NCBI GenBank assembly: GCA_963575745.1 | Contig: CAUYUJ010001305.1 | Location: forward strand, 1-64,000 | Length of the DNA: 64,000 nt | Direction: 5' to 3' | Origin: Prorocentrum cordatum | Lineage: Eukaryota > Sar > Dinophyceae > Prorocentrales > Prorocentraceae | Part shown: in pieces, positions 4,036 through 46,508 of the stretch | How positions within the stretch are numbered: position 1 is the stretch's first letter | Layout: each line of letters starts with the position of its first letter | Program-made: the position numbers and the translations under genes | The notes under the pieces: model-generated | Told to the model about the DNA's origin: nothing | The model's input: the letters and a program-made list of their open reading frames with translations, nothing else | The model's database searches: none

Positions 4036-4644
4036 GGCGGCCACGTAAACACGCTCTGCCTGGCGAGCGGATAGCGCATCGCTCCGCCCCGCGGCGCAGG
4101 AGGCCAGGAACAACTTGGGACATTATGTGCCCAACCGGCCGCGGGGACCGTGCAGGTCGCGCGAAGACCGCCCAGGATACCGGCGGACCTCAGGCCAGCC
4201 AGAAGCGACAGGTAACAGGGTGGTTTGCCGGTGATGTTGGGCGCGATGTAGCCCGTGGTGGTCATGTTACTGTTACTGTTACTGTAGGGGTTCTCGCGCC
4301 CGTAGGCGGCCCCCGATAGCCTGGGGACCTCCAAAAAGCATCACTTCCCCCGGAGGGGGGGGGGCGACGAAGGACGGCGGGGCCCGGGACCCTGCGCCGG
4401 GGGGGAGAAGGGGGAGACGAGGGAGGAGGAGGAGGAGGAACGAGGAGGGCACAGGGGGAGCCAGGGACCCGCAATACCTCGGCGACCCCCCCCCAGGGAA
4501 GTGCGCGATGGACGCCCTGCCACCCGAACCAAAACTCCGAATAGGATCGTCCGATTGGAGGGGACGGGTGAAGGGGTGGGACCCGCCTGCCCCTGGCATC
4601 TCCCGGTGCGTACCTGATGGCCGAGGCAACAACGAGATCTTAGA

Positions 4645-7299: not shown

Positions 7300-8670
7300 C
7301 CCACAAGGACAAGGACGGCCTCGTGAGAATCCCAGGAAGAAAAAGGAGGATAACGAGGGGCCGGGGGAGGATAACGGGGAAGGGAGGACGAGAGGGGGGG
7401 GGGGGAATGAGGACGGCGACGAGGATGAGGGACACCCCGAAACGACGCGGAAGAGCTGGTCGCGTGTTACGGATCCGGATCTCTGATGGCGAGGGACGAG
7501 AGGTGTCACATGTGATGGCCCTGCTCATCATTCGCACCCACCCCTGCCCCCTCCTCTACTTCCTGCTACTCCGCCCCCCTTCCCATTCCTCCTGTCCTCC
7601 TCGCTTCCCTCATCCCCCTCCTCCTATCGCCCTCCATTTCTTCCACGTCCTCCTGTGCTCCTCTTCCTTCTCATGCTCGCTCCCAGCGGGCCCTTGAGAG
7701 CCCAAAGAGCGACGCAGATCAGGAGGTGGAGCAAAGAGAAGATAGGGAGGACAGAATGGGACAGGCAGAAGCGGGCAATCGCGCAGAACGCAGACCACTT
7801 AGTGGCACAACCCTCGAGCCAGGATGGAGGTCCTGGCGCGCTCCTGGCCCAACGACTTGTGGCAGACGTTCAGGGGGCACTGGCGGGGAGAACGATAACA
7901 TCCTCTTGCCTTGCTTCTGGCGACGGCTATCCCTGGCGGGCCTTACACCAAGCCGAAGCTTGTGAGGCAACTCATTGGATGCCTCCGTAAGAACGATTCG
8001 GCCAGATTCGGCCATTCTGCCAGATTCGGCCGGATTGAGCGGGGCATTCAGCCTTACCAGACGCGATGTATCAAACTTACACTGGATGATGCTGGTTTCG
8101 GCTGGTTTTCCTCCACGGAGAGACCAGCGCCGATGCTGAAGTGCACCTCCCGGGAGGTGCATCCTAACAGAGCCACCTCTGCGGCTCCCGGGCGCCCGGT
8201 GCCCCCCACACTCCTGCTCCGTCGCCTGCTGCCCGAGGGACGCCACGCCATGGCGGCGGGCAAGGCTGGCGTGGGCAGCGGAGCATGCACGTCCGCTGAG
8301 CAAAGGCTTGCTGGTGGCCAAACAAACTGCCCCTCCGATGCACTTCAAGTCGTCTGCCGACGGCGCGAGGAGGGCTGACTGCGTGGTGGGGCCAGTGATG
8401 TTGCTGATTGAGTTTGGATGCGCCAGCAGCCCTTCTTCACCATCATCAGGAGGAGGCTGTCCCCTGCCCGTCAACTCACCATGGTCTCAACTCCCCTGGG
8501 TGCCGTCGGTCCGCACGAGATTCGACTGCTCTGGTAGACACAGCCATGGCATACGAATCATTCACTTCCTGCTTCAGCGAGTGCCACGTCTATAACTCCC
8601 GAAATCATCTCCTCCTTGCTTCCGCAATACGCTCCCTGGCATCCCCTCTGCTTCTTCTCATATACGCCCT
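7300..8670. other. No recognised gene
   Basis: C/T-rich sequence at 7510-7680 is followed by ordinary mixed sequence. There is a small repetition of AGATTCGGCC at 7996-8038 and a palindrome CCTCCCGGGAGG at 8147. A 251-codon minus-strand frame (7719-8474) is open but shows no domain, and no splice-bounded exon could be picked. Confidence 0.4.
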
Positions 8671-37575: not shown

Positions 37576-37713
37576 GCTGGCAGCAAACCCGTGCGTCCTG
37601 CGCGGCGTTACGTCGTACCGAAGGCGGGGGGCTGAGGCTGCGGGCGGCGAAGCACCTCGGCCGGGTAGGTGGGTGGGGGGATGGACTAACCTGTTCCTCT
37701 CTCCTTCGGTCCC

Positions 37714-38052
37714 TCCTCCTCCTCCTCCTCCTCCTCCTCCTCCTCCTCACTCCTCCTCCTCCTCCTCCCTCCTCCTCCCCCTCCTCCTCCTCCTCCACCT
37801 CCTCCTCCCCCTCCCTCCTCCTCCTCCTCCTCCTCCTCCCTCCTCCTCCACCTCCTCCTGCCCCCCCCCCTCCTCCTCCCTCCTCCACCTCCTCCTCCAC
37901 CTCCTCCTCCCCCTCCTCTCCTCCTCCTCCTCCTCCTCCTCCTCCTCCTCCTCCTCTTCCTCCTCCTCTCCTCCTCCTCCTCCTCCTCCTCCTCCTCCTC
38001 CTCCTCCTCCTCCTCCTCCTCCTCCTCCTCCTCCTCCTCCTCCTCCTCCTCC
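37714..38052. repeat. (TCC)n microsatellite directly 5' of the LINE
   Basis: About 340 bp of TCC/CTC triplets with ACCTCC and CCCC interruptions; the last 130 bp are nearly pure. The array keeps its triplet register up to 38052 and then stops at the first base of the spliced-leader match. The same motif in the same orientation resumes at 44411, after the LINE. Confidence 0.95.
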
Positions 38053-38073
38053 CCGTAGCCATTTTGGCTCAAG
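38053..38073 (+). other. Genome-encoded dinoflagellate spliced-leader sequence
   Basis: CCGTAGCCATTTTGG followed by CTCAAG is identical over 21 of 21 bases to positions 2-22 of the conserved dinoflagellate spliced leader (DCCGUAGCC...CUCAAG). In expressed mRNAs this sequence is added in trans; finding it in the chromosome at the 5' edge of a retroelement marks a copy made from a trans-spliced RNA. The base before it (C at 38052) belongs to the TCC repeat and does not fit D at position 1. An ATG follows immediately. Confidence 0.95.
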
Positions 38074-38210
38074 ATGTTGAGTTCCGCAGGGGAACAAGTG
38101 GATACCGCTAGTCCGCGGCAGTGCCAGGGCTGTTCAGCCCGACATCTTCTCTCGAGACCTGTACGGGGAGCTCCGCGCTGCCGTCCAGAGTCCCAGCTCA
38201 GCCCGCCGCC

Positions 38211-39470
38211 ATGTCGGAACGCAGGCGCGGAGGCGGCAAGTCACCAGTGCCAAGGGTCTCCTTCTCGTCCGACTTCGTGGGATGCAAGAAGTGCGGGTAC
38301 CGTTGGACCTACAAGACCAAGCAGTCCTGCTACAGCTGTGGGCAGGCCCTGCGACCATCGTACTCACCTGCTCCCAAGCCCCGTGGCGTCTGGGCTAGCG
38401 GCAGCGGAGGCTGGTGGCAGGACAACCACAAAGGCGCCGGCTGGTACAAGGAAGCTGAGGAGACCACGCAGAGGACCGAGCCGCTTGAGATCGGCGAGGT
38501 GGTGCAGACCCTCGGCGGGCACGCCCTCTCCGAGGCCCAGAGGCAGGCGCTCCAGCAGCTCGAGAGCGCCTTCGCCCCGCCGGCCCCTGCAGGGCGCCCC
38601 GCGCTCCTGGAGGAGGGCATCCAGCGGGCGGCCGCGGCAGAGAGGGCGGCCCGTCGGGAGCTGGAGAAGCGCGCCAAGCAGCTGGCCGACGCCAAGCTCT
38701 GGCTCGACGAATGCCAGGCTCGATCCGATGCGGCAGCTGACGCCCTGGTGGGGGCTGAGGTCAAGCTGGCGCAGGAGAAGAAGGCGTTTGCGTATCCAGG
38801 CAAGGACCCTCAGCCCGAGGGGACCAACAAGGGCGGCGGGGTTATCAACCTCTCAGCCTTGTTGGGCGAAGGAGAGGCCAGTTTTATCATCGAGGACGGC
38901 CCCCTCTTCGACCTGGAGGGGCTGGATGTCACATCCGAGCAGCGGCACCAGTTCAACAAGCTCAAGCAGACCTTCGAGGCGTCCGTGCAGCAGGCGGTCC
39001 GCACGCACTTCGGGCCAGGGGCTGACGTCCTCAAGTCCCAGCGCGAGCAGTTCGAAGAGATCAGGACGCCCCGCGAGACCTTCAAGAAGCGCAGACGGGA
39101 GCACCCCCCTGCGACCGCGGCGGCAACAGAGGCGTCGTCGCCCCAGACCCCCGAGGGGAGCCCGCCGCAGGCGCCTGCCCAGGCCAAGCCCGAGGGCCCG
39201 CCTGCGGAGGCGGCGGCGGCAGAGGCGCCAGCGGCCCAGAGCCCCGAGAGAGGCCTGCCGCAGGCGCCAGCCCAGGCCTCCCAGGAGGCCCAGCAGGCGG
39301 CCCAGCCCGCCGCGGAGCCGCAGGGTGCCCAGGGCGCTTCGCCCGGCGCTGCCAGCTCTGACGCTGGCCCTGACGCTGGTCGCGAAGCCGCTGGCAAGGA
39401 GTTGGCGGAGGCCTTGCAGCGCGCCAGGGCTCGCAGGGCGGAGGCAGCCGCCAAGCCAGTACCTCTGTAG
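38211..39470 (+). CDS. LINE ORF1 protein (zinc ribbon, coiled coil)
   Basis: A 419-residue protein starting at ATG 38211 in a good context (CGCCGCCATGT). An upstream in-frame ATG at 38121 would add 30 residues of poor composition and is not preferred. Residues 25-43 form a Cys4 motif (C25-x2-C28-x11-C40-x2-C43; CKKCGYRWTYK...CYSC), followed by a Trp/Gly-rich stretch. A likely coiled coil follows at about 120-190 (ERAARRELEKRAKQLADAK), then a conserved-looking segment and an Ala/Pro/Glu-rich tail (about 300-419) with repeated PQAPAQA words. By analogy with LINE ORF1 proteins it should bind and package the element RNA; nucleic-acid binding through the zinc motif is inference. ORF2 domains begin about 190 bp downstream in another frame. 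Confidence 0.82.
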   Translation: MSERRRGGGKSPVPRVSFSSDFVGCKKCGYRWTYKTKQSCYSCGQALRPSYSPAPKPRGVWASGSGGWWQDNHKGAGWYKEAEETTQRTEPLEIGEVVQTLGGHALSEAQRQALQQLESAFAPPAPAGRPALLEEGIQRAAAAERAARRELEKRAKQLADAKLWLDECQARSDAAADALVGAEVKLAQEKKAFAYPGKDPQPEGTNKGGGVINLSALLGEGEASFIIEDGPLFDLEGLDVTSEQRHQFNKLKQTFEASVQQAVRTHFGPGADVLKSQREQFEEIRTPRETFKKRRREHPPATAAATEASSPQTPEGSPPQAPAQAKPEGPPAEAAAAEAPAAQSPERGLPQAPAQASQEAQQAAQPAAEPQGAQGASPGAASSDAGPDAGREAAGKELAEALQRARARRAEAAAKPVPL

Positions 39471-39471
39471 C

Positions 39472-41118
39472 CCGCACGGGCTCGGCAGCCTGGCCTCCAC
39501 GGCTGCAGGTACCAGTACACAATGCTCTACATGGTCGGGTTCATGGCATGAGTCCAGCACGTCGCAGGAGCCAGAACCTTTCAGAGGGTCTCCTCCTGAC
39601 GCAGTCAGTACATCATTCTCTACATGGTCAAGTTCACCGAAGGCGAGCCCTCCGCGTCGTCGAGGCAAGGGCGGCACGCGCAACGTGGGGCTCGAGTTCA
39701 TAGGCTTCAACTGTTCATCTTGGGCGCAGGCCATCGATGTCTTGGATGAAGCCGCTACAAGGAAGATCGTGGGCCCCATGCATATCACGTTCCTTCAGGA
39801 GCATAGGCTCACCGCGCCCATCGCCAAGGACATCGAGGCGGCCAGCTTCAACAGGCATTACACGGCAGCACTGGTTCCAGCTGTCAGCGGCCCAGGCGGA
39901 CGGCCGACTAGTGGAGTTGGGTTCCTCGTGCCAAGGAATGTTGGCCTTACACATCTGGAAGGCATGAATACGTTCGATATCTCACCTCCTGGGTCGCCTG
40001 GCCGCGTGGCAGTGGGCTGGTGCTCTGCTGGACAGAAGGGTGGCCTCATGATTATCACGGCATACTTTTGGACACGGGAAGGTTGGACGATTCGAAATTT
40101 GTCAATTCTGGAGTCCATTGCAACGGTCATCAAGCAGTATGACATACCGTGGGTATTCCAAGCAGACTTCAACGAGACGGGGGAGTCTTTACTCAATACT
40201 GGTTGGTGCCAAGATGTGGGTGGAGTTGTGCGACTCCCTTCCACTACCACGTGTGCAGGAGTCGGCGGAGGCAGTATCATCGATTTCTTTGTGATCGACG
40301 CCCGCATCCAGCATGCTTTCGGAGACACGGTAGAAGTGTTAGACACTGCAGCCACACCTCACTCGCCCGTTCGCCTAGTCATGCAGTCCAGGATGCGAGC
40401 TAAAGGCGGCTGGAGGCTTGCCAAGCCCAGACCTTTCCCAATGGAGAGGCCGTGCGGACCAGTCCCGCAGCCTGCACAGTGGCCAGATTTCGATCATCAG
40501 GACGATTTAAATGGCACCCAGCTTGACCAGCTTTGGAAGCATATTTCACACTGTGCTGAAACAGAGCTGGTGAATCTCCTGGGCGTGGAAGAACCCCAAT
40601 CCTACCTCGGTCGGGGCGATCCCCCTCGGTGGACCTGGGCCCCCCTCGCTGGTCCTCAATCGCGCGCACGCCCCAGGGGAACGCCTAGCTCCCGAGCTTG
40701 GCGGTGGGTCGCCGCACGAGCCAGTGACTTTATTTTCCTTACACAAGCTGCCCAGCAGGAAGGTACCTGGATGCATGCACGGGCGCGACGAGCAAAGCTC
40801 GAGCGCCGCGTCGAAGGAGGAAGGAGTCGGTTGGTTCACGACTTGGGGGAGGAGGCTGAGCACGTAATCGCCCAGTTTGAACGGCACCGCGCCTTTTGTC
40901 TCGAGGGCCCAGCGCTCAGGGAGCAGGCCCCCGAGATCATGGGTCTCCAGCGACGAGCTGTAGCCAATGCTCAGACCATCGAGCGGCAGCAGGCAGCCAC
41001 ACGGTCAATTGAAGACGGAATCGGCAGCTGGCTCTTCCTTCATCCACAGGATCAGCAAGTGGCGTGCCCCTCCTCCCCCCGTCACGGGTTACTCCGTCTC
41101 CAACCTCGAGCTTGCTGA
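39472..41118 (+). CDS. LINE ORF2, part 1: APE-type endonuclease
   Basis: The frame is open from 38074 to the TGA at 41118, but only the part after ORF1 looks coding. The endonuclease domain spans about 39664-40400: FNCSSW (Asn 39709), LQEH (Glu 39799), WVFQADFN (Asp 40165, Asn 40171), SIIDFFVID (Asp 40282) and TPHSPV (His 40360). The usual SDH triad end is TPH here, so the Asp paired with the catalytic His is replaced by Pro; this may weaken activity. No ATG lies in frame between the ORF1 stop and the domain. The role is to nick target DNA for reverse transcription. After about 41010 the coding sense passes to the next frame (+1). Confidence 0.82.
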   Translation, partial: PHGLGSLASTAAGTSTQCSTWSGSWHESSTSQEPEPFRGSPPDAVSTSFSTWSSSPKASPPRRRGKGGTRNVGLEFIGFNCSSWAQAIDVLDEAATRKIVGPMHITFLQEHRLTAPIAKDIEAASFNRHYTAALVPAVSGPGGRPTSGVGFLVPRNVGLTHLEGMNTFDISPPGSPGRVAVGWCSAGQKGGLMIITAYFWTREGWTIRNLSILESIATVIKQYDIPWVFQADFNETGESLLNTGWCQDVGGVVRLPSTTTCAGVGGGSIIDFFVIDARIQHAFGDTVEVLDTAATPHSPVRLVMQSRMRAKGGWRLAKPRPFPMERPCGPVPQPAQWPDFDHQDDLNGTQLDQLWKHISHCAETELVNLLGVEEPQSYLGRGDPPRWTWAPLAGPQSRARPRGTPSSRAWRWVAARASDFIFLTQAAQQEGTWMHARARRAKLERRVEGGRSRLVHDLGEEAEHVIAQFERHRAFCLEGPALREQAPEIMGLQRRAVANAQTIERQQAATRSIEDGIGSWLFLHPQDQQVACPSSPRHGLLRLQPRAC

Positions 41119-43246
41119 TCCTCAGGAAGCGGCCGACAGGGCTGCGCAAGAGTGGTTTGACGTTTGGGGCTCCCATGGGCAGGAAAGCACGGGTCCCTCA
41201 GATCGACCCTGGGAGGCCGCTCGTTTTGCCCATCCGTTGGTCCACCTGGACCGCCAGCTGTTTACCAAAATATGTTTGAGTTTTCCTGCCAGGACGGGAA
41301 TAGGCTCCGACCACTGGCACCCACGCTGGTGGGCGTGGATTTCGGACGAAGGCAAAGACTGCCTGATTCAGCTAGTGATGTTTATATCTCGCACGGCACA
41401 GTTCCCTTCGCAGGTCAGGTACATCATATACTTCCTACTTTCGAAGGAGTCGGGAGGCACACGGCCGATTGGGCTCCTCCCCTCCCTCATGCGTGTAGTT
41501 GAACGAGCACACTCTGGCCTCTTTCACGACTGGGAGCGCTCTGCCAAGCGCAAATATGACTTCGGGGGCCCTGGAGGGGGCTCCGAAGAGGCAGCTTGGC
41601 ACCAGATGGTGCACGATGAGGGGGCGCGTGAGGGGGAGGTGTCTGTGACGGGGGTCCTGGATTTGTCGCGTGCTTTTGAACATGTAACCATGAATGCTCT
41701 GTGGGTTGTAGCCCCTCTGTGCGGCTTCCCACAGCAGCTAGCCAAGCTTCTCATCAGCATCTACACGTCCACCAGGCTGGTTGCATTTCGAGGGGTCCTA
41801 GCCAATAAGGCGATGCAAACTTTTTCAGCCGTTGTGGCTGGCTCGATCGGTGGCACCAGGGCACTCAAGATGGTGGTGCTGCAGGTCACAGATGCAATAC
41901 ATCAAGCCTGGGGGGCGCGCCTCCAGATGAAATTATTCGTCGATGACCTCAGTATTCAAGTCCGAGGAGCGTTGCGATGTCTCAATGTTCTGCAGGCCGC
42001 TGTCACGTTCTATATCCGTGAGATTGAAGGTACCTGGCGCATCCCTGTCTCCCGTGGTGCCCGCGGCAAAGGGTACATCCTCGTCGCCTCGGCCTCGGCT
42101 CGAAATCACTGTGCTGCCTGGGCCAAAGACCTGGGTCTTGCCATCACCGACGCCAGCTCACAGCTGGGAGTGGACAGCGCTGGAGGCGCCGTAGTTCGCA
42201 AAAGAAAGAACATGCAGAAGAGATTTAAATACGCCTGTCACCGCAAGGCCAAATTAAAAGCCCTCTCAAAGCAAGGGGCCCGCCTCGCCAGGGTTGTCCG
42301 CCAAGGGGTGATCCCGTCCGTGACCTACGGGTCGAGCTGTTTGGGAGTCTCGCCTGTCTCTCTGGACAGAATGCGTGTCATGGTTTCGGGCAGCCTGGGC
42401 GGTAGTGCGATTGGTCGAGATAGAGTCCTCCGACTCTGGACGTATCAAGTTGATCCTGTGGTCGAGGGATCGCAGAGGCCGCTATGCATGTGGGCCACGC
42501 AGGCATGGAATGGAGTGCATCAGGTAGACATGGCCAGGGCCTGGCGCAGGGAAATGTCACGCGAAGCGGCCAGACGGAGTCGGACGCTAGATCGCCCCTG
42601 GAGCCAAGTTCGAGGGCCTGCCTCTGCTTGTAATCTTACGCTGCAGAGGCTGGGCTGGTCCTGGCCTAGCTGGCACACCATCCGCACTCACGCTGGTGAA
42701 ATGTTTGACATGCGCCGATCGGCGCCAAGCATGCTGCGCAAGTATATTTACCTTCGTTTAGAGGATCAGGAGCTCACCGACTGGGCAACGCAGCGAGGCA
42801 TGCCCTTTCGGAAGCCCTTCCTCGAGCCTTGTCGCGCAGCAGTCAGGACAAAAAAGAAAAAGGGCCAGAAGCAGTCGGCTATGCTAGCGTTCCTGTGCAG
42901 CGATTTTTGGACGCAAGACAAAGTGTGGAGAGCAGGCCACTCTGAAGATCGAAGTTGTCAAAAGTGTGGGCACGCCATAGGAAATCAACACCATAGATTT
43001 TGTAGGTGTCCAGCGTCTCAGGGGCAGCGCCAGGCTGCAGGTGAATCCACCGTGCCTCCTCCTCGAGCTCCTCCTCCCATCTCTTCTCCAGGGCTCTTGC
43101 GCCACACCCACTGGGGGACCCCTTCCAGGACGCCACGCCCAGCATTGAGACCCTGGACCCCGAGTACGGGGACGATCCCCTTCTCTCGCCCCTTCTCTCG
43201 GGCCTGGCCTATTCGGATGGGTCGGGGGTCGGGGTCTCTGGGTTGA
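40967..43246 (+). CDS. LINE ORF2, part 2: reverse transcriptase and CCHC finger
   Basis: The open frame of 759 codons makes sense from about 41030. RT motifs appear in order: KESGGTRPIGLLPSLMRVVE, motif A LDLSRAFEHV (Asp 232 of this frame, 41660), motif B GSIGGTRAL, motif C LFVDDLS (Asp 326-327, 41942-41947). All three catalytic Asp are kept; FVDD replaces the common F/YADD. A CCHC finger (C-x2-C-x7-H-x3-C; CQKCGHAIGNQHHRFC) lies at 42956-43003. It should synthesise cDNA from the element RNA at the nicked target. Meaningful sequence ends about 43050, where the frame changes again; the last 65 residues are Pro/Ser/Arg-rich shadow. Confidence 0.87.
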   Translation: MLRPSSGSRQPHGQLKTESAAGSSFIHRISKWRAPPPPVTGYSVSNLELADPQEAADRAAQEWFDVWGSHGQESTGPSDRPWEAARFAHPLVHLDRQLFTKICLSFPARTGIGSDHWHPRWWAWISDEGKDCLIQLVMFISRTAQFPSQVRYIIYFLLSKESGGTRPIGLLPSLMRVVERAHSGLFHDWERSAKRKYDFGGPGGGSEEAAWHQMVHDEGAREGEVSVTGVLDLSRAFEHVTMNALWVVAPLCGFPQQLAKLLISIYTSTRLVAFRGVLANKAMQTFSAVVAGSIGGTRALKMVVLQVTDAIHQAWGARLQMKLFVDDLSIQVRGALRCLNVLQAAVTFYIREIEGTWRIPVSRGARGKGYILVASASARNHCAAWAKDLGLAITDASSQLGVDSAGGAVVRKRKNMQKRFKYACHRKAKLKALSKQGARLARVVRQGVIPSVTYGSSCLGVSPVSLDRMRVMVSGSLGGSAIGRDRVLRLWTYQVDPVVEGSQRPLCMWATQAWNGVHQVDMARAWRREMSREAARRSRTLDRPWSQVRGPASACNLTLQRLGWSWPSWHTIRTHAGEMFDMRRSAPSMLRKYIYLRLEDQELTDWATQRGMPFRKPFLEPCRAAVRTKKKKGQKQSAMLAFLCSDFWTQDKVWRAGHSEDRSCQKCGHAIGNQHHRFCRCPASQGQRQAAGESTVPPPRAPPPISSPGLLRHTHWGTPSRTPRPALRPWTPSTGTIPFSRPFSRAWPIRMGRGSGSLG

Positions 43247-44352
43247 AAGCGTTCGGTTGGGGCCTCTGCTTTGTGGACCAGCACGGCAACGTACGCAAAG
43301 CGATGCATGGCACGGTCCCAGGAGTAAGGCAGGCACAAAGTGTGCTTAGAGCTGAATTGCATGGTTTCTTGAATGTTCTTCGCCACGGCACAGCCCCTCT
43401 GCAGGCAGGGATCGATAATTCCACAGTCGTTCGGGGCTTCAGGCGAGGCCCAGTTTGGTGCCGCCAAGCCAGGCGACCGCATGCAGATTTATGGCACATG
43501 ATTTGGAATGCGATTGAGGACTCGTTCTCGGGGGAGGGGGACCTCGTCGTCGTCAAGGTCAAAGCGCATTCCAAAAAGGCTCAGGCCCAGCAACTCGAGG
43601 GACTCGAGCTGTGCAACTATCTAGGGAATCAATGCGCCGACCTTCAAGCGAAGGAGGGAGCCAAGCTAGACGCCATCCCGCCTCACACTCGTGACACGTG
43701 GGTGTCTAGATCCAAGGAGGTTTGTGCTATCCTCGGGCTCGTCGGTGACATGACTTGTAAAATAGGCACGTTTGACGACACCACAGGCCGTCTCCAGAAT
43801 GCCCCCCAGCCCCCTGGCCCTCGGCCGCGCCGTTCGGTGCTGCCTCCCCCAGAATCTCGGCACGTCCTGGAGTGGGATAGGGGGTCTTGGAGGTGTGCTT
43901 GTTGTGCTAGACGGGCCCACAGCTATAAGGCCAAGTTGGTGCTGTCGCGTAAGTTTTGCAGGAAGGGTTTCTCCTCCCACGGTAAGTGGAAGAAGATAGC
44001 GCGTGTCGACGGGGCTCCTTTGCAGGGGCCAAGGCGACACAAGCTGTCTCGAATAGGCCACTATACCTTCTGTCGAGAGTGCGGCGCCTTTTTGAGCGCC
44101 AGGGCTTGTGGGTTGCTTGCTGGATGTCCTAAGGACCCGAAGGACCACAACGCCAAGACTCGACGAAATCGTTTGCTGGCAGGTAAGCACCCGTATAAAA
44201 ATGATAGACTGCCTGGAGAGGTGGTCGCGCTGTCAAGAACCCAGGAATTGAATTTTCTGGAGTCGATTGGGATTGCTGCCAGGGCCTCTGCCGCTGGAAG
44301 CGGCGTGGAGGCACTCTCTTCCTCCGCCGCCTCAGGCGGTGCGGAGGTCTAA
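43045..44352 (+). CDS. LINE ORF2, part 3: RNase H and Cys/His-rich C-terminus
   Basis: The frame opens after a TGA at 43042-43044 and runs to TAA at 44350-44352. RNase H is complete: YSDGSG (Asp 43216), RAELHGF (Glu 43354), GIDNST (Asp 43414) and GNQCADLQ (Asp 43639) give the D-E-D-D set, with VKAHSKK (His) before the last Asp. Start codons are of no help; this is the C-terminal part of the ORF2 polyprotein. After RNase H come two Cys-rich patches (WRCACCARRAHS; HYTFCRECGAFLSARACG), probably a zinc-binding tail. RNase H would remove the RNA strand after first-strand synthesis. Confidence 0.87.
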   Translation: MHRASSSSSSSHLFSRALAPHPLGDPFQDATPSIETLDPEYGDDPLLSPLLSGLAYSDGSGVGVSGLKAFGWGLCFVDQHGNVRKAMHGTVPGVRQAQSVLRAELHGFLNVLRHGTAPLQAGIDNSTVVRGFRRGPVWCRQARRPHADLWHMIWNAIEDSFSGEGDLVVVKVKAHSKKAQAQQLEGLELCNYLGNQCADLQAKEGAKLDAIPPHTRDTWVSRSKEVCAILGLVGDMTCKIGTFDDTTGRLQNAPQPPGPRPRRSVLPPPESRHVLEWDRGSWRCACCARRAHSYKAKLVLSRKFCRKGFSSHGKWKKIARVDGAPLQGPRRHKLSRIGHYTFCRECGAFLSARACGLLAGCPKDPKDHNAKTRRNRLLAGKHPYKNDRLPGEVVALSRTQELNFLESIGIAARASAAGSGVEALSSSAASGGAEV

Positions 44353-44410
44353 CCAGGTCTGTCGCAGGTGGACGCGAGGTGCTCGCCCACGCTGTGCTCG
44401 CGGGAAAAAA

Positions 44411-44472
44411 CCTCCTCCTCCTCCTCCTCCTCCTCCTCCTCCTCCTCCTCCTCCTCCTCCTCCTCCTCCTCC
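44411..44472. repeat. (CCT)n microsatellite directly 3' of the LINE
   Basis: About 20 CCT triplets begin immediately after the six-A run and end CCCC at about 44474. Motif and orientation match the array before 38053. Confidence 0.95.
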
Positions 44473-45001
44473 CCTTCTCTATCAACGCTACCAACGCGGC
44501 TGGGTCACGAATCGAGCTGGCCGCGCTTAAAACATGTTTTGCTCCCGGGTGAAAACGCACGGACGCCGCTATGCTGCGGCAAATGTATGTTCCTTGGTGT
44601 GTCTGGTCCGCCCCAGTGCCACCTCCTGCTTCCCGCGTGCGTTCGCGGGTCAGCAGACACTTCATAGTGGCTACGATCTTGGCGCGGTCGATCCGTCCTG
44701 CTGCGAGCAGCCTCGCGGGTCCAGGATGCTGCCCAGGGCCGACGGAGCCGACCAGTCCAGGAATGCCACGCAGTGTGCGCTGACGGCCACTGCCAGGCGT
44801 GGCAAGCAGTGCCCGCCCACTGTCGGCGGATGGTCCTGGTGGCATCACGGTGGCCAAGGCAGGTGCGGCGAGTGCAACGCGGCCAAAAGGTCGGCGTGCG
44901 CAGGCCCGCGGCCTGCCCCAGGCGCCCCGTCGACGCGTGCGCCAGGCTGGAAGCTCTGCCCTGACAGAAGGGTGCGGTCGCCATTCGGGGAGGCGGAGTG
45001 A

Positions 45002-45400
45002 GCAGCCCTGCTTGGGCGCGCGGCCAAGGCGGAGTCTCGAACCGAGGGTGGCAGGCACAGGGATGTGGAGTCGCGGGGCGAAGTCACGTTGGAGGAAAAG
45101 GAGCTGCAGCGATAGATTCGGCTCGACTGCGTCGCCGCAGGCCGTTCGCAGATGGAGGCGAAGCTCAAAGCTCTTCGCGAGTTTCACGCAGAGTCTCGGC
45201 CAGTCGGTGCTCGCAGCAGGGACCTGTCAGAGAAACAGCTCAAGCTAGAGAAGCGCTTCACGGCACAGCCTGAAAATTTGGAACAGCTGGGCAAGCAGTT
45301 GGCTGAGCCGGGCTCCACACGGGTTGAACAGGCAAAGGATCTGGCGGAGACGGAGACGGAGCTGCAGCGTGTGCAAACTGCGTGCTACTGCCGCCGCTGA
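45002..45400 (+). pseudogene. Coiled-coil fragment resembling a LINE ORF1, with in-frame TAG
   Basis: One frame reads HRDVESRGEVTLEEKELQR, TAG at 45113-45115, then IRLDCVAAGRSQMEAKLKAL, DLSEKQLKLEKRFTAQ, ENLEQLGKQLAEPGSTR and AKDLAETETELQRVQ, with strong heptad character. Upstream (44780-44900) a Cys/Trp-rich piece (GKQCPPTVGGWSWWHHGG) recalls an ORF1 zinc region. Type and position, just before an RNase H remnant, suggest a decayed LINE ORF1, but there is no clear sequence match to the intact ORF1. It could be an unrelated coiled-coil gene. Confidence 0.42.
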
Positions 45401-45529
45401 ACCGGCTGCTGACGGAGCGGGGGACGCCTCTGCTCATGCTGGTGCTGCTGCTCATGCTACTCCTAGGCCCTCTGCACCCACTGGCTCGTCATCAGGCGTT
45501 GCTGGTGTCGATGGTCAAGGTGGGAATGG

Positions 45530-45685
45530 TGAGAATCAGCTCACGTAGCTGATTTTCCCGGCGCCTCCCGGCGCCGGGAGGCGACCATGTATCGAGGAAT
45601 GGGCCCTCGGTGGGGCCGAAACCAGCTGCATGCAGCAGATTTCGTAACCCCCCCTTTCCCAATCCCCCCCTTTCGCCCGGCCCGA
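45530..45685 (+). mobile_element. 157-bp multi-palindrome element, copy 2
   Basis: Nearly identical to 13939-14095, from TGAGAATCAGCTCACGTAGC to CCCGGCCCGA. It lies between an Ala/Ser/Gly-rich reading (to 45529) and repeat-encoding sequence (from 45686), so it probably interrupted an older gene-like unit. No target duplication is evident. Confidence 0.82.
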
Positions 45686-45935: not shown

Positions 45936-46283
45936 TGTCCAAGGGTGCTGCAATCACTTCGACAGCTGCAGTTACTTCAAGCTGGTCGGCGTCGGCTTCA
46001 GGGTCTTCTGGGTCCAGAGGTTGTGGACAATCCTCGCATGTCATTGCCCAGATGCAGTTAGGCGGCGCGCATTGCCTAGCGTGTCTGGCAGCGCCCAGCG
46101 GGGCAATGTAGAGACAGCCGGGCGGTGCGCACGGCCTGGCGGGTCTGGCACAATTGCGAACCCCGAGAGAGCTCCAGGCTGGGGGGAGCTGGCCGCTCCT
46201 GCTGCGGCTCGAGCCTCAGGCAGGGGAGGGCTTGGCCCCCCCTGCTGCGGCTCAGGCGCTGGAAGTGCTACACAGGAGTTGGG

Positions 46284-46508
46284 CGCCCGAGTTATCCGGG
46301 GTATCTCGGGTCCGGGGTAACTCGGGTTAAGATTCCCGAAAAAGGAACCCGAATTAGCCCTGACCCGAGTTACCCCTGATGATGTGGGGCTCTGGACGCC
46401 CGAATTATCTGGGGTAACTCGGGTCCGGGGTGACTCGGGTTCGGAATCCCGAAAAACGAATCCGAGTTAGCCCTGACCCGAGTTACCCCTGATGATTCGG
46501 GGCTCTGA
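46284..46508. repeat. 113-bp tandem duplication with internal inverted repeat
   Basis: Unit 1 starts CGCCCGAGTTATC at 46284 and unit 2 CGCCCGAATTATC at 46397. Each contains GGGGTAACTCGGGT or GGGGTGACTCGGGT and, about 45 bp later, ACCCGAGTTACCCC, so each can form a stem of up to 14 bp. Confidence 0.88.

What the first reader, a model, noticed from the sequence alone, without database searches (positions are those of the whole stretch)
38053..38073. A LINE whose genomic 5' end is the trans-spliced leader
Seen: 21 of 21 bases of the dinoflagellate spliced leader sit at the exact 5' boundary of a LINE, and the element ends in an A-run. Known: the leader is added in trans to dinoflagellate mRNAs, and relict leaders mark genes retroposed from mRNA. 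Inference: this LINE was copied in full from its own mature, trans-spliced, polyadenylated mRNA. If it happens repeatedly, each new copy carries a leader relic whose internal AG (CCGTAG, CTCAAG) could act as acceptor for the next leader. That would tie element life cycle to host trans-splicing.
Basis: partly seen in the sequence, partly recalled or inferred. Interest (0 to 1): 0.92.

Follow-up and report, generated by a model that had tools for sequence, protein, structure and literature searches.

The report
LINE capped by host spliced leader
A jumping gene in a dinoflagellate genome starts exactly with the 21-letter tag that the cell splices onto the front of its messenger RNAs, so this copy was likely written back into DNA from the element's own finished messenger, which would tie its spread to a host RNA-processing step.

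Summary
All 21 bases of the dinoflagellate spliced leader (SL) lie at 38053-38073, with no base between them and the 5' leader of a 6,358-bp LINE (38053-44410) that has ORF1, an APE-type endonuclease, a reverse transcriptase, probably RNase H, and six A's at its end. It sits inside a CCT microsatellite: CCT repeats abut both ends. Its 137-nt 5' UTR and 52-nt 3' UTR fit published dinoflagellate mRNAs. No intron donor follows the SL, so it is not an SL RNA gene. The three ORF1 relatives found are from Prorocentrum cordatum. Best reading: this copy was reverse-transcribed in full from the element's own trans-spliced, polyadenylated mRNA. SL relics on host genes are known; my searches showed no LINE reported with one. 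Whether the family cycles this way is untested: the genome search answered none of 20 tries, so no second 5' end was seen. ORF2 changes frame twice, so this copy is not intact as assembled, and a one-off processed copy remains possible. New here: the CCT landing site puts 40 of 40 pyrimidines just before the SL's first AG, reached by 2 of 4035 AGs on that strand, itself included.

The parts
37712..38052 (+). (CCT)n microsatellite, 5' flank and presumed landing site
   Evidence: TRF, 112.7 copies, 90% match; abuts the SL with no base between
38053..38073 (+). Dinoflagellate spliced leader, 21/21 (positions 2-22 of 22)
38074..38210 (+). 5' UTR between SL and ORF1 start (137 nt)
   Evidence: sequence; length inside the 51-369 nt range reported for A. 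carterae (PMC2488372)
38211..39470 (+). ORF1, 419 aa, CxxC..CxxC finger and a charged, helix-prone stretch (both by eye); intact
   Evidence: 95% identical to P. cordatum P0001, same length; third-position GC signal in this frame over most of its length; no Pfam family
39667..40512 (+). APE/EEP-type endonuclease domain (ORF2, frame 1)
   Evidence: relatives P0008/P0009 share N, E, DxN, D, H positions; AF2 pLDDT 63, pTM 0.71, Foldseek EEP superfamily, TRAS1 endonuclease 1wdu target TM 0.70
41069..43060 (+). Reverse transcriptase with FVDD box, then a zinc-finger-like stretch (ORF2, frame 2)
   Evidence: RVT_1 3.9e-8; zf-RVT 0.038, below its cut-off; RT relatives
43084..44352 (+). RNase H-like and C-terminal region (ORF2, frame 1), stop at 44350-44352
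   Evidence: PF00075 E 0.0067, below its cut-off; 31% identity to the C-terminal part of P0005
44353..44404 (+). 3' UTR, 52 nt
   Evidence: sequence; inside the 42-143 nt range reported for A. carterae
44405..44410 (+). A6 at the 3' end, followed by C
   Evidence: sequence; fits the AAAAG/C poly(A)-site motif
44411..44472 (+). CCT array (20.7 copies), 3' flank, presumed continuation of the landing site
   Evidence: TRF, 100% match; 5' and 3' flanks match for every length 3k+2 up to 59 nt, the longest tested

Best explanation
The complete spliced leader at 38053-38073 is the 5' end of a LINE copy that was likely made by full-length reverse transcription of the element's own trans-spliced, polyadenylated mRNA into a CCT microsatellite. 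Shown: the SL, the 5' UTR, ORF1, the endonuclease, the reverse transcriptase and the A6 follow one another in mRNA order, and CCT repeats abut both ends. Inferred: the host spliced the SL onto the LINE transcript, the mRNA was translated and then used as template by its own endonuclease and reverse transcriptase (target-primed reverse transcription, with the usual cis preference), and synthesis ran to the second nucleotide of the mRNA. Inferred with less certainty: because the translated mRNA is the template, the leader is the normal 5' end of full-length copies of this family, and any promoter upstream of the acceptor is left behind each time. A new copy must then be expressed by read-through plus re-splicing, or from the leader itself.
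For: Exact SL, unique in 64 kb. Zero-base junction with the leader region of a real LINE. UTRs of 137 and 52 nt and A6-C fit dinoflagellate mRNAs (PMC2488372). CCT repeats on both sides mark the insertion ends independently of the SL. No intron donor after the SL, unlike the SL gene in L003. The family is multicopy: protein relatives of the element named P. cordatum come from four contigs of different length, three of them close (P0001 95%, P0003 85%, P0007 92% in its ORF1 piece) and one distant (P0002 57%).
Against: Only one 5' end was seen; the genome search did not answer in 20 of 20 tries. ORF2 has two frame changes, so this copy is not intact as assembled. The A-run is only six bases. A target-site duplication cannot be read inside the repeat. 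The SL lacks its first base. No transcript evidence was available. Not every dinoflagellate transcript is seen with an SL: 4.95% of assembled P. cordatum transcripts (PMC10666404; the authors warn of fragmentation) and 13.54% and 50.39% of full-length Polarella transcripts (PMC7245778). A published view favours Ty1/copia, not LINEs, as the retroposition enzyme (PMC6050394).
Confidence: 0.82

Rival explanations
1. Dead-end processed copy: the master LINE has a longer 5' region with its own promoter; trans-splicing removed it from one mRNA, and this copy is a one-off retropseudogene, not a step in the normal cycle.
For: ORF2 changes frame twice; a single SL with no stacked relic fits a parent without an SL; trypanosome L1Tc keeps an internal promoter and makes unspliced transcripts (PMC4748587).
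Against: ORF1 is intact and 95% identical to that of another copy; with cis preference the translated, trans-spliced mRNA should be the usual template (established knowledge, not tested here).
Confidence: 0.3
2. The genomic leader itself is the start of transcription: the retroposed SL acts as promoter (TTT(G) motif), so the element's transcripts begin at the SL without a need for an upstream promoter.
For: Proposed for dinoflagellate retrogenes (PMC6050394 section 7); a genomic SL (21/22) at the exact 5' RNA end of a PCP gene is reported, with initiation there as one reading (PMC2488372). It would explain one SL without relics.
Against: No transcript data here; the promoter role is a hypothesis in the source, which also gives a counterargument. 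It accounts for later rounds, not for the first capture of the SL.
Confidence: 0.15
3. The LINE inserted by chance directly behind a pre-existing SL relic of another retrogene.
For: SL sequences occur in dinoflagellate genomes (496 and 244 in two Symbiodinium genomes, some in SL gene arrays; PMC8045281).
Against: It needs insertion at the exact last base of the SL; CCT repeat then SL with nothing else between means that the 'other retrogene' has left no sequence on either side.
Confidence: 0.03
4. Template switching from the LINE RNA onto SL RNA during reverse transcription, as in LINE-1 chimeras with small RNAs.
For: [quoted passage not shown]
Against: A jump to the 3' end of SL RNA would bring in its intron part; here only the exon is present, ending exactly at the exon border.
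Confidence: 0.04
5. SL RNA gene, or a LINE inserted into an SL RNA gene as the SL-gene-targeting LINEs of trypanosomatids do (SLACS/CZAR, recalled).
For: Full SL exon present.
Against: No GT/GC donor after the exon (ATGTTG; compare GTACGC in L003); no SL piece over 10 nt at the 3' end; no Rfam hit in the window at gathering threshold (whether Rfam models the dinoflagellate SL RNA was not checked).
Confidence: 0.01
6. Assembly artefact at the CCT-SL junction.
For: CCT arrays are hard to assemble (general knowledge); the two frame changes in ORF2 might be indel errors.
Against: An artefact would not be expected to place an exact SL flush with a 5' UTR of ordinary length.
Confidence: 0.03

Closest known systems
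Dinoflagellate retrogenes with DinoSL relics ('recycling of processed cDNAs')
   Same: Genomic SL at the 5' end, short A-run at the 3' end, mRNA-like UTRs.
   Different: Here the retroposed mRNA is that of a LINE, which encodes its own endonuclease and reverse transcriptase; the SL is complete (21 of 22) and single.
APE-type LINEs with RNase H; among the 50 PDB rows shown the TRAS1 endonuclease has the highest target TM-score
   Same: ORF1, APE-type endonuclease, reverse transcriptase, RNase H-like end, 3' A-run. Insertion in a simple repeat recalls repeat-targeting LINEs.
   Different: The 5' end is a host spliced leader; the endonuclease matches solved ones only by fold, and a target preference rests on one copy.
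Trypanosomatid L1Tc and related LINEs (Pr77)
   Same: LINE in a host with SL trans-splicing; AP endonuclease, reverse transcriptase, RNase H (PMC4748587).
   Different: L1Tc carries an internal promoter that gives unspliced transcripts, and Pr77-driven reporter mRNAs lacked the SL (PMC4748587); this copy carries the SL.
DinoRNAV endogenous viral elements near DinoSL and LINEs
   Same: RNA copied into a dinoflagellate genome with an SL nearby (6 of 26 RdRp elements), with LINEs proposed as the agent (PMC10235124).
   Different: There a virus RNA is copied in trans; here a LINE carries the SL itself.

Membership tests
LINE (APE-type non-LTR retrotransposon) | Reverse transcriptase domain | tested here: met
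   RVT_1 E 5.5e-8, above its cut-off; FVDD aligned with YVDD/YFDD of relatives
LINE (APE-type non-LTR retrotransposon) | APE-like endonuclease upstream of the RT | tested here: met
   Conserved N, E, DxN, D, H; EEP fold in a model of pLDDT 63, pTM 0.71. No Pfam family for it by sequence
LINE (APE-type non-LTR retrotransposon) | No long terminal repeats | tested here: met
   blastn of the element against the window: apart from the element itself only an 80%-identical 82-bp repeat inside ORF1
LINE (APE-type non-LTR retrotransposon) | RNase H domain (present in some clades) | tested here: inconclusive
   PF00075 E 0.0067, below its cut-off; 31% identity to P0005
LINE (APE-type non-LTR retrotransposon) | 3' poly(A) or repeat tail | tested here: met
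   A6 at 44405-44410; short
LINE (APE-type non-LTR retrotransposon) | Target-site duplication | tested here: inconclusive
   Every length 3k+2 up to 59 nt matches inside the CCT repeat
LINE (APE-type non-LTR retrotransposon) | Intact ORF2 | tested here: not met
   Two frame changes relative to P0005, P0008 and P0009; concerns autonomy of this copy, not membership of the family
DinoSL-marked retrocopy | Genomic SL directly before a coding unit | tested here: met
   21/21 at 38053-38073, 137 nt before ORF1
DinoSL-marked retrocopy | Stacked truncated relics after repeated cycles | tested here: not met
   No further SL word over 10 nt in the window; not required for a single cycle
DinoSL-marked retrocopy | Loss of introns relative to a parent | not testable with these tools
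   No parent copy available; the genome search unanswered
SL RNA gene | Splice donor (GT/GC) after the SL exon | tested here: not met
   ATGTTG follows
SL-gene-targeting LINE (SLACS/CZAR type, recalled) | Insertion inside the SL exon with exon sequence on both sides | tested here: not met
   Whole exon at the 5' side, no SL word over 10 nt at the 3' side
Microsatellite-targeting LINE | Copies repeatedly in the same repeat and orientation | not testable with these tools
   One copy only; CCT arrays of 18 nt or more cover 1434 of 64000 bases on this strand, those beside the element included, so one hit by chance is about 2%

The most novel reading that the evidence does not exclude
This LINE family has handed its 5' end to the host splicing machinery. 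It lands in CCT microsatellites on the pyrimidine strand, so each landing site supplies a polypyrimidine tract just before the leader's own AGs (CCGTAG, CTCAAG). Read-through transcripts of a new copy are trans-spliced there, a fresh leader is restored, and the CTCAAG acceptor regenerates exactly one leader per round. The element then needs no promoter of its own, and its machinery would be a strong candidate for the enzyme that seeds dinoflagellate genomes with SL-marked retrogenes.
Probability: 0.22. Interest if true: 0.9.

Novelty: new variant of a known kind. Interest (0 to 1): 0.62.

Why it matters
Which reverse transcriptase writes SL-marked retrogenes into dinoflagellate genomes was stated to be unknown in a 2018 review, which favoured Ty1/copia (PMC6050394). 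A LINE that carries the same SL on its own 5' end would be direct evidence that LINE machinery copies mature trans-spliced mRNA to within a base of its end. It also poses a clean question: how a LINE keeps itself expressed when trans-splicing strips everything upstream at each round. T. cruzi L1Tc solves this with an internal promoter and unspliced transcripts; this element would be the opposite solution. The test is simple: align the 5' ends of all copies.

Tried and rejected
Rejected: SL RNA gene and SL-gene-targeted LINE (no donor, no SL at the 3' side); chance 21-mer.

Led nowhere: the RT query in viral contigs matched nothing, and three further queries there (an RT alignment, P0009, P0005) gave 59, 2 and 3 pattern matches but no relative; ORF1 in genome contigs, 203 pattern matches and no relative; stacked-relic pattern in viral contigs, 0; endonuclease, RNase H and RT against PDB sequences, nothing convincing (profile hit to R2 at E 0.22); 10 other ORFs of the window, of the 81 listed, against Pfam: one sub-threshold hit. 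The protein searches returned 3 hits each, scoring only the 7,984-7,993 candidates that shared most words, so relatives may be missed. The first endonuclease alignment with whole proteins (A2) was misaligned and dropped for A3.

Results against the reading: ORF2 frame changes; a single 5' end; no acceptor consensus beyond AG was found in A. carterae (PMC2488372), so the polypyrimidine idea rests on analogy; many dinoflagellate transcripts are seen without an SL.

Full report
What is there. The window is dinoflagellate DNA. GC is 62%, near the 59.7% published for Prorocentrum cordatum (PMC10666404, passages). The ORF1 of the element at issue is 95% identical over 419 aa to a protein named Prorocentrum cordatum; 3 of 3 hits to ORF1 carry that name, and so does a fourth protein from the endonuclease search (P0007). 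At 38053-38073 on the + strand lies the dinoflagellate spliced leader, 21 of 21 bases, the only match with up to 3 mismatches in the window; 0 of 100 shuffles had one. The full leader has 22 nt with a variable first base (PMC7245778, passages); here that position is C, from the repeat, so the copy reaches nucleotide 2 of the mRNA.

Anatomy. CCT array 37712-38052 | SL 38053-38073 | 137-nt leader | ORF1 38211-39470 | ORF2 with endonuclease 39667-40512, RT 41069-43060 and RNase H-like part 43084-44352 | 52-nt 3' UTR | A6 44405-44410 | CCT array 44411-44472. ORF1 shows the highest third-position GC in its own frame over most of its length. The RT is certain (RVT_1). The endonuclease has no Pfam family, but it shares N, E, DxN, D and H positions with two unnamed relatives, and a three-sequence AlphaFold2 model (pLDDT 63, pTM 0.71) finds the DNase I/APE1/Tdp2 fold; the TRAS1 LINE endonuclease has the highest target-normalised TM-score, 0.70, among the 50 rows shown. 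RNase H is weak. Relatives carry endonuclease and RT in one frame (P0008, P0009) and RT and RNase H in one frame (P0005), whereas this copy changes frame between them: somewhere between 40482 and 41045, and between 43042 and 43084. So ORF1 is intact and ORF2 is not, as assembled.

Why it is a copy of a mature mRNA. SL, 5' UTR, coding region, 3' UTR and A-run are in mRNA order with nothing extra. In Amphidinium carterae the 5' UTR averages 165 nt (51-369), the 3' UTR 72 nt (42-143), and genomic poly(A) sites read AAAAG/C (PMC2488372, passages). Here they are 137, 52 and AAAAAAC. The insertion ends are marked independently by the CCT repeat on both sides; the two flanks agree for every length 3k+2 up to 59 nt, so a target-site duplication is possible but cannot be measured. 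The SL is not an SL RNA gene: in L003, a contig with rDNA (by eye), the SL exon is followed by GTACGC; here ATGTTG follows. Template switching onto SL RNA would have brought intron sequence.

The landing site. CCT arrays of at least 18 nt cover 1434 of 64000 bases in this orientation (40 arrays, those beside the element included), so a random insertion would hit one about 2% of the time: suggestive for one copy, no more. The consequence is notable. In the 40 nt that end two bases before the AG of CCGTAG, 40 of 40 are pyrimidines, a value reached by 2 of 4035 AGs on this strand, itself included; for CTCAAG the fraction is 0.85, reached by 17 of 4035, itself included. In trypanosomes such tracts drive trans-splicing (general knowledge). 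In A. carterae no simple acceptor consensus beyond AG was found, so this is inference.

What cycle would follow. Relics in transcripts are truncated at the AG after CCGTAG (PMC3229502, passages). If that AG were used here, the next copy would carry SL plus CCATTTTGGCTCAAG. No such relic is present. Either the parent had no SL, or the leader is exchanged exactly at CTCAAG, or the genomic SL itself starts the transcript, as proposed for retrogenes (PMC6050394 section 7) and considered for a PCP gene (PMC2488372). Stacks may also arise from tandem SL genes (PMC6616646, passages). Only other copies can tell, and the tool for the window's own assembly was unreachable in 20 of 20 tries (listed in Tried and rejected). 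No second 5' end was therefore examined.

Known or new. SL-marked retrogenes are well known (PMC12014239, PMC7245778, passages), and LINEs have been proposed as the agent for viral inserts (PMC10235124, passages). L1Tc in T. cruzi does the reverse of this element: internal promoter, unspliced transcripts (PMC4748587, passages). In the listings (8 of 8 papers; 20 of 41; 8 of 8; 20 of 21; 15 of 26; 0; 12 of 88), and in passages of 12 papers (of one of them, PMC6050394, also a whole section), I saw no LINE reported to carry its own SL. The library lacks most subscription journals, and one key paper (Song et al. 2017) was not held.

Verdict. Observation confirmed; origin from the element's own trans-spliced mRNA well supported for this copy (0.82); family-level cycle open; CCT-assisted self-renewal a testable speculation (0.22).

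Noticed in passing
L001 (IMGVR_UViG_3300045993_001077), about 1785-2766 minus, and 2893-2913 minus: A giant-virus-like contig (GC 6-26% in 250-nt windows outside the block and its edges) holds a block of about 50% GC that begins exactly with a full DinoSL, encodes a 254-aa ORF and ends near an A-rich stretch; a second exact SL lies 147 bases upstream. It looks like a host dinoflagellate mRNA copied into a viral genome.
   Followed up: partly
38074-39663, frame 1: The ATG directly behind the SL opens a frame with no stop across all of ORF1 and into the ORF2 endonuclease. Within ORF1 that frame has 0 stops; synonymous-codon shuffles of ORF1 give 3.9 on average and 0 stops in 0.35% of 2000; the other alternative frame has 8, with 8.8 expected. 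Post hoc, and that frame seems less conserved than ORF1 where P0007 covers it (66% over 38 aa against 92%). It may hint that ORF2 is read from the SL-proximal ATG.
   Followed up: partly
L002 (CAJXDJ010000191.1) 1-60: End of a contig in a Dehalococcoidia MAG, probably chimeric: (TCA)n, then T and the 21-nt SL, then CCAGATGG. Another SL standing directly behind a trinucleotide array.
   Followed up: no
L003 (JAKUNN010000063.1) 4334-4354 minus: A contig labelled Dehalococcoidia carries what by eye is alveolate-like 28S and 18S rDNA with an SL RNA gene in the spacer (SL exon then GTACGC): probably a contaminant in a bacterial MAG.
   Followed up: no
44800-45550 (+): By eye, a decayed ORF1-like remnant (CGECN finger and a charged, helix-prone stretch) just downstream of the 3' CCT array; perhaps a second LINE family.
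   Followed up: no
P0007 (P. cordatum, 1357 aa): A predicted protein named as AAA+ ATPase is joined to ORF1, endonuclease and RNase H pieces of this LINE family (ORF1 piece 92% identical): a LINE inside a gene model, by exonisation or by annotation error.
   Followed up: partly
46280-46507: Two tandem copies of a 113-bp unit made of GGGGTAACTCGGG-type sub-repeats with their inverted forms.
   Followed up: no
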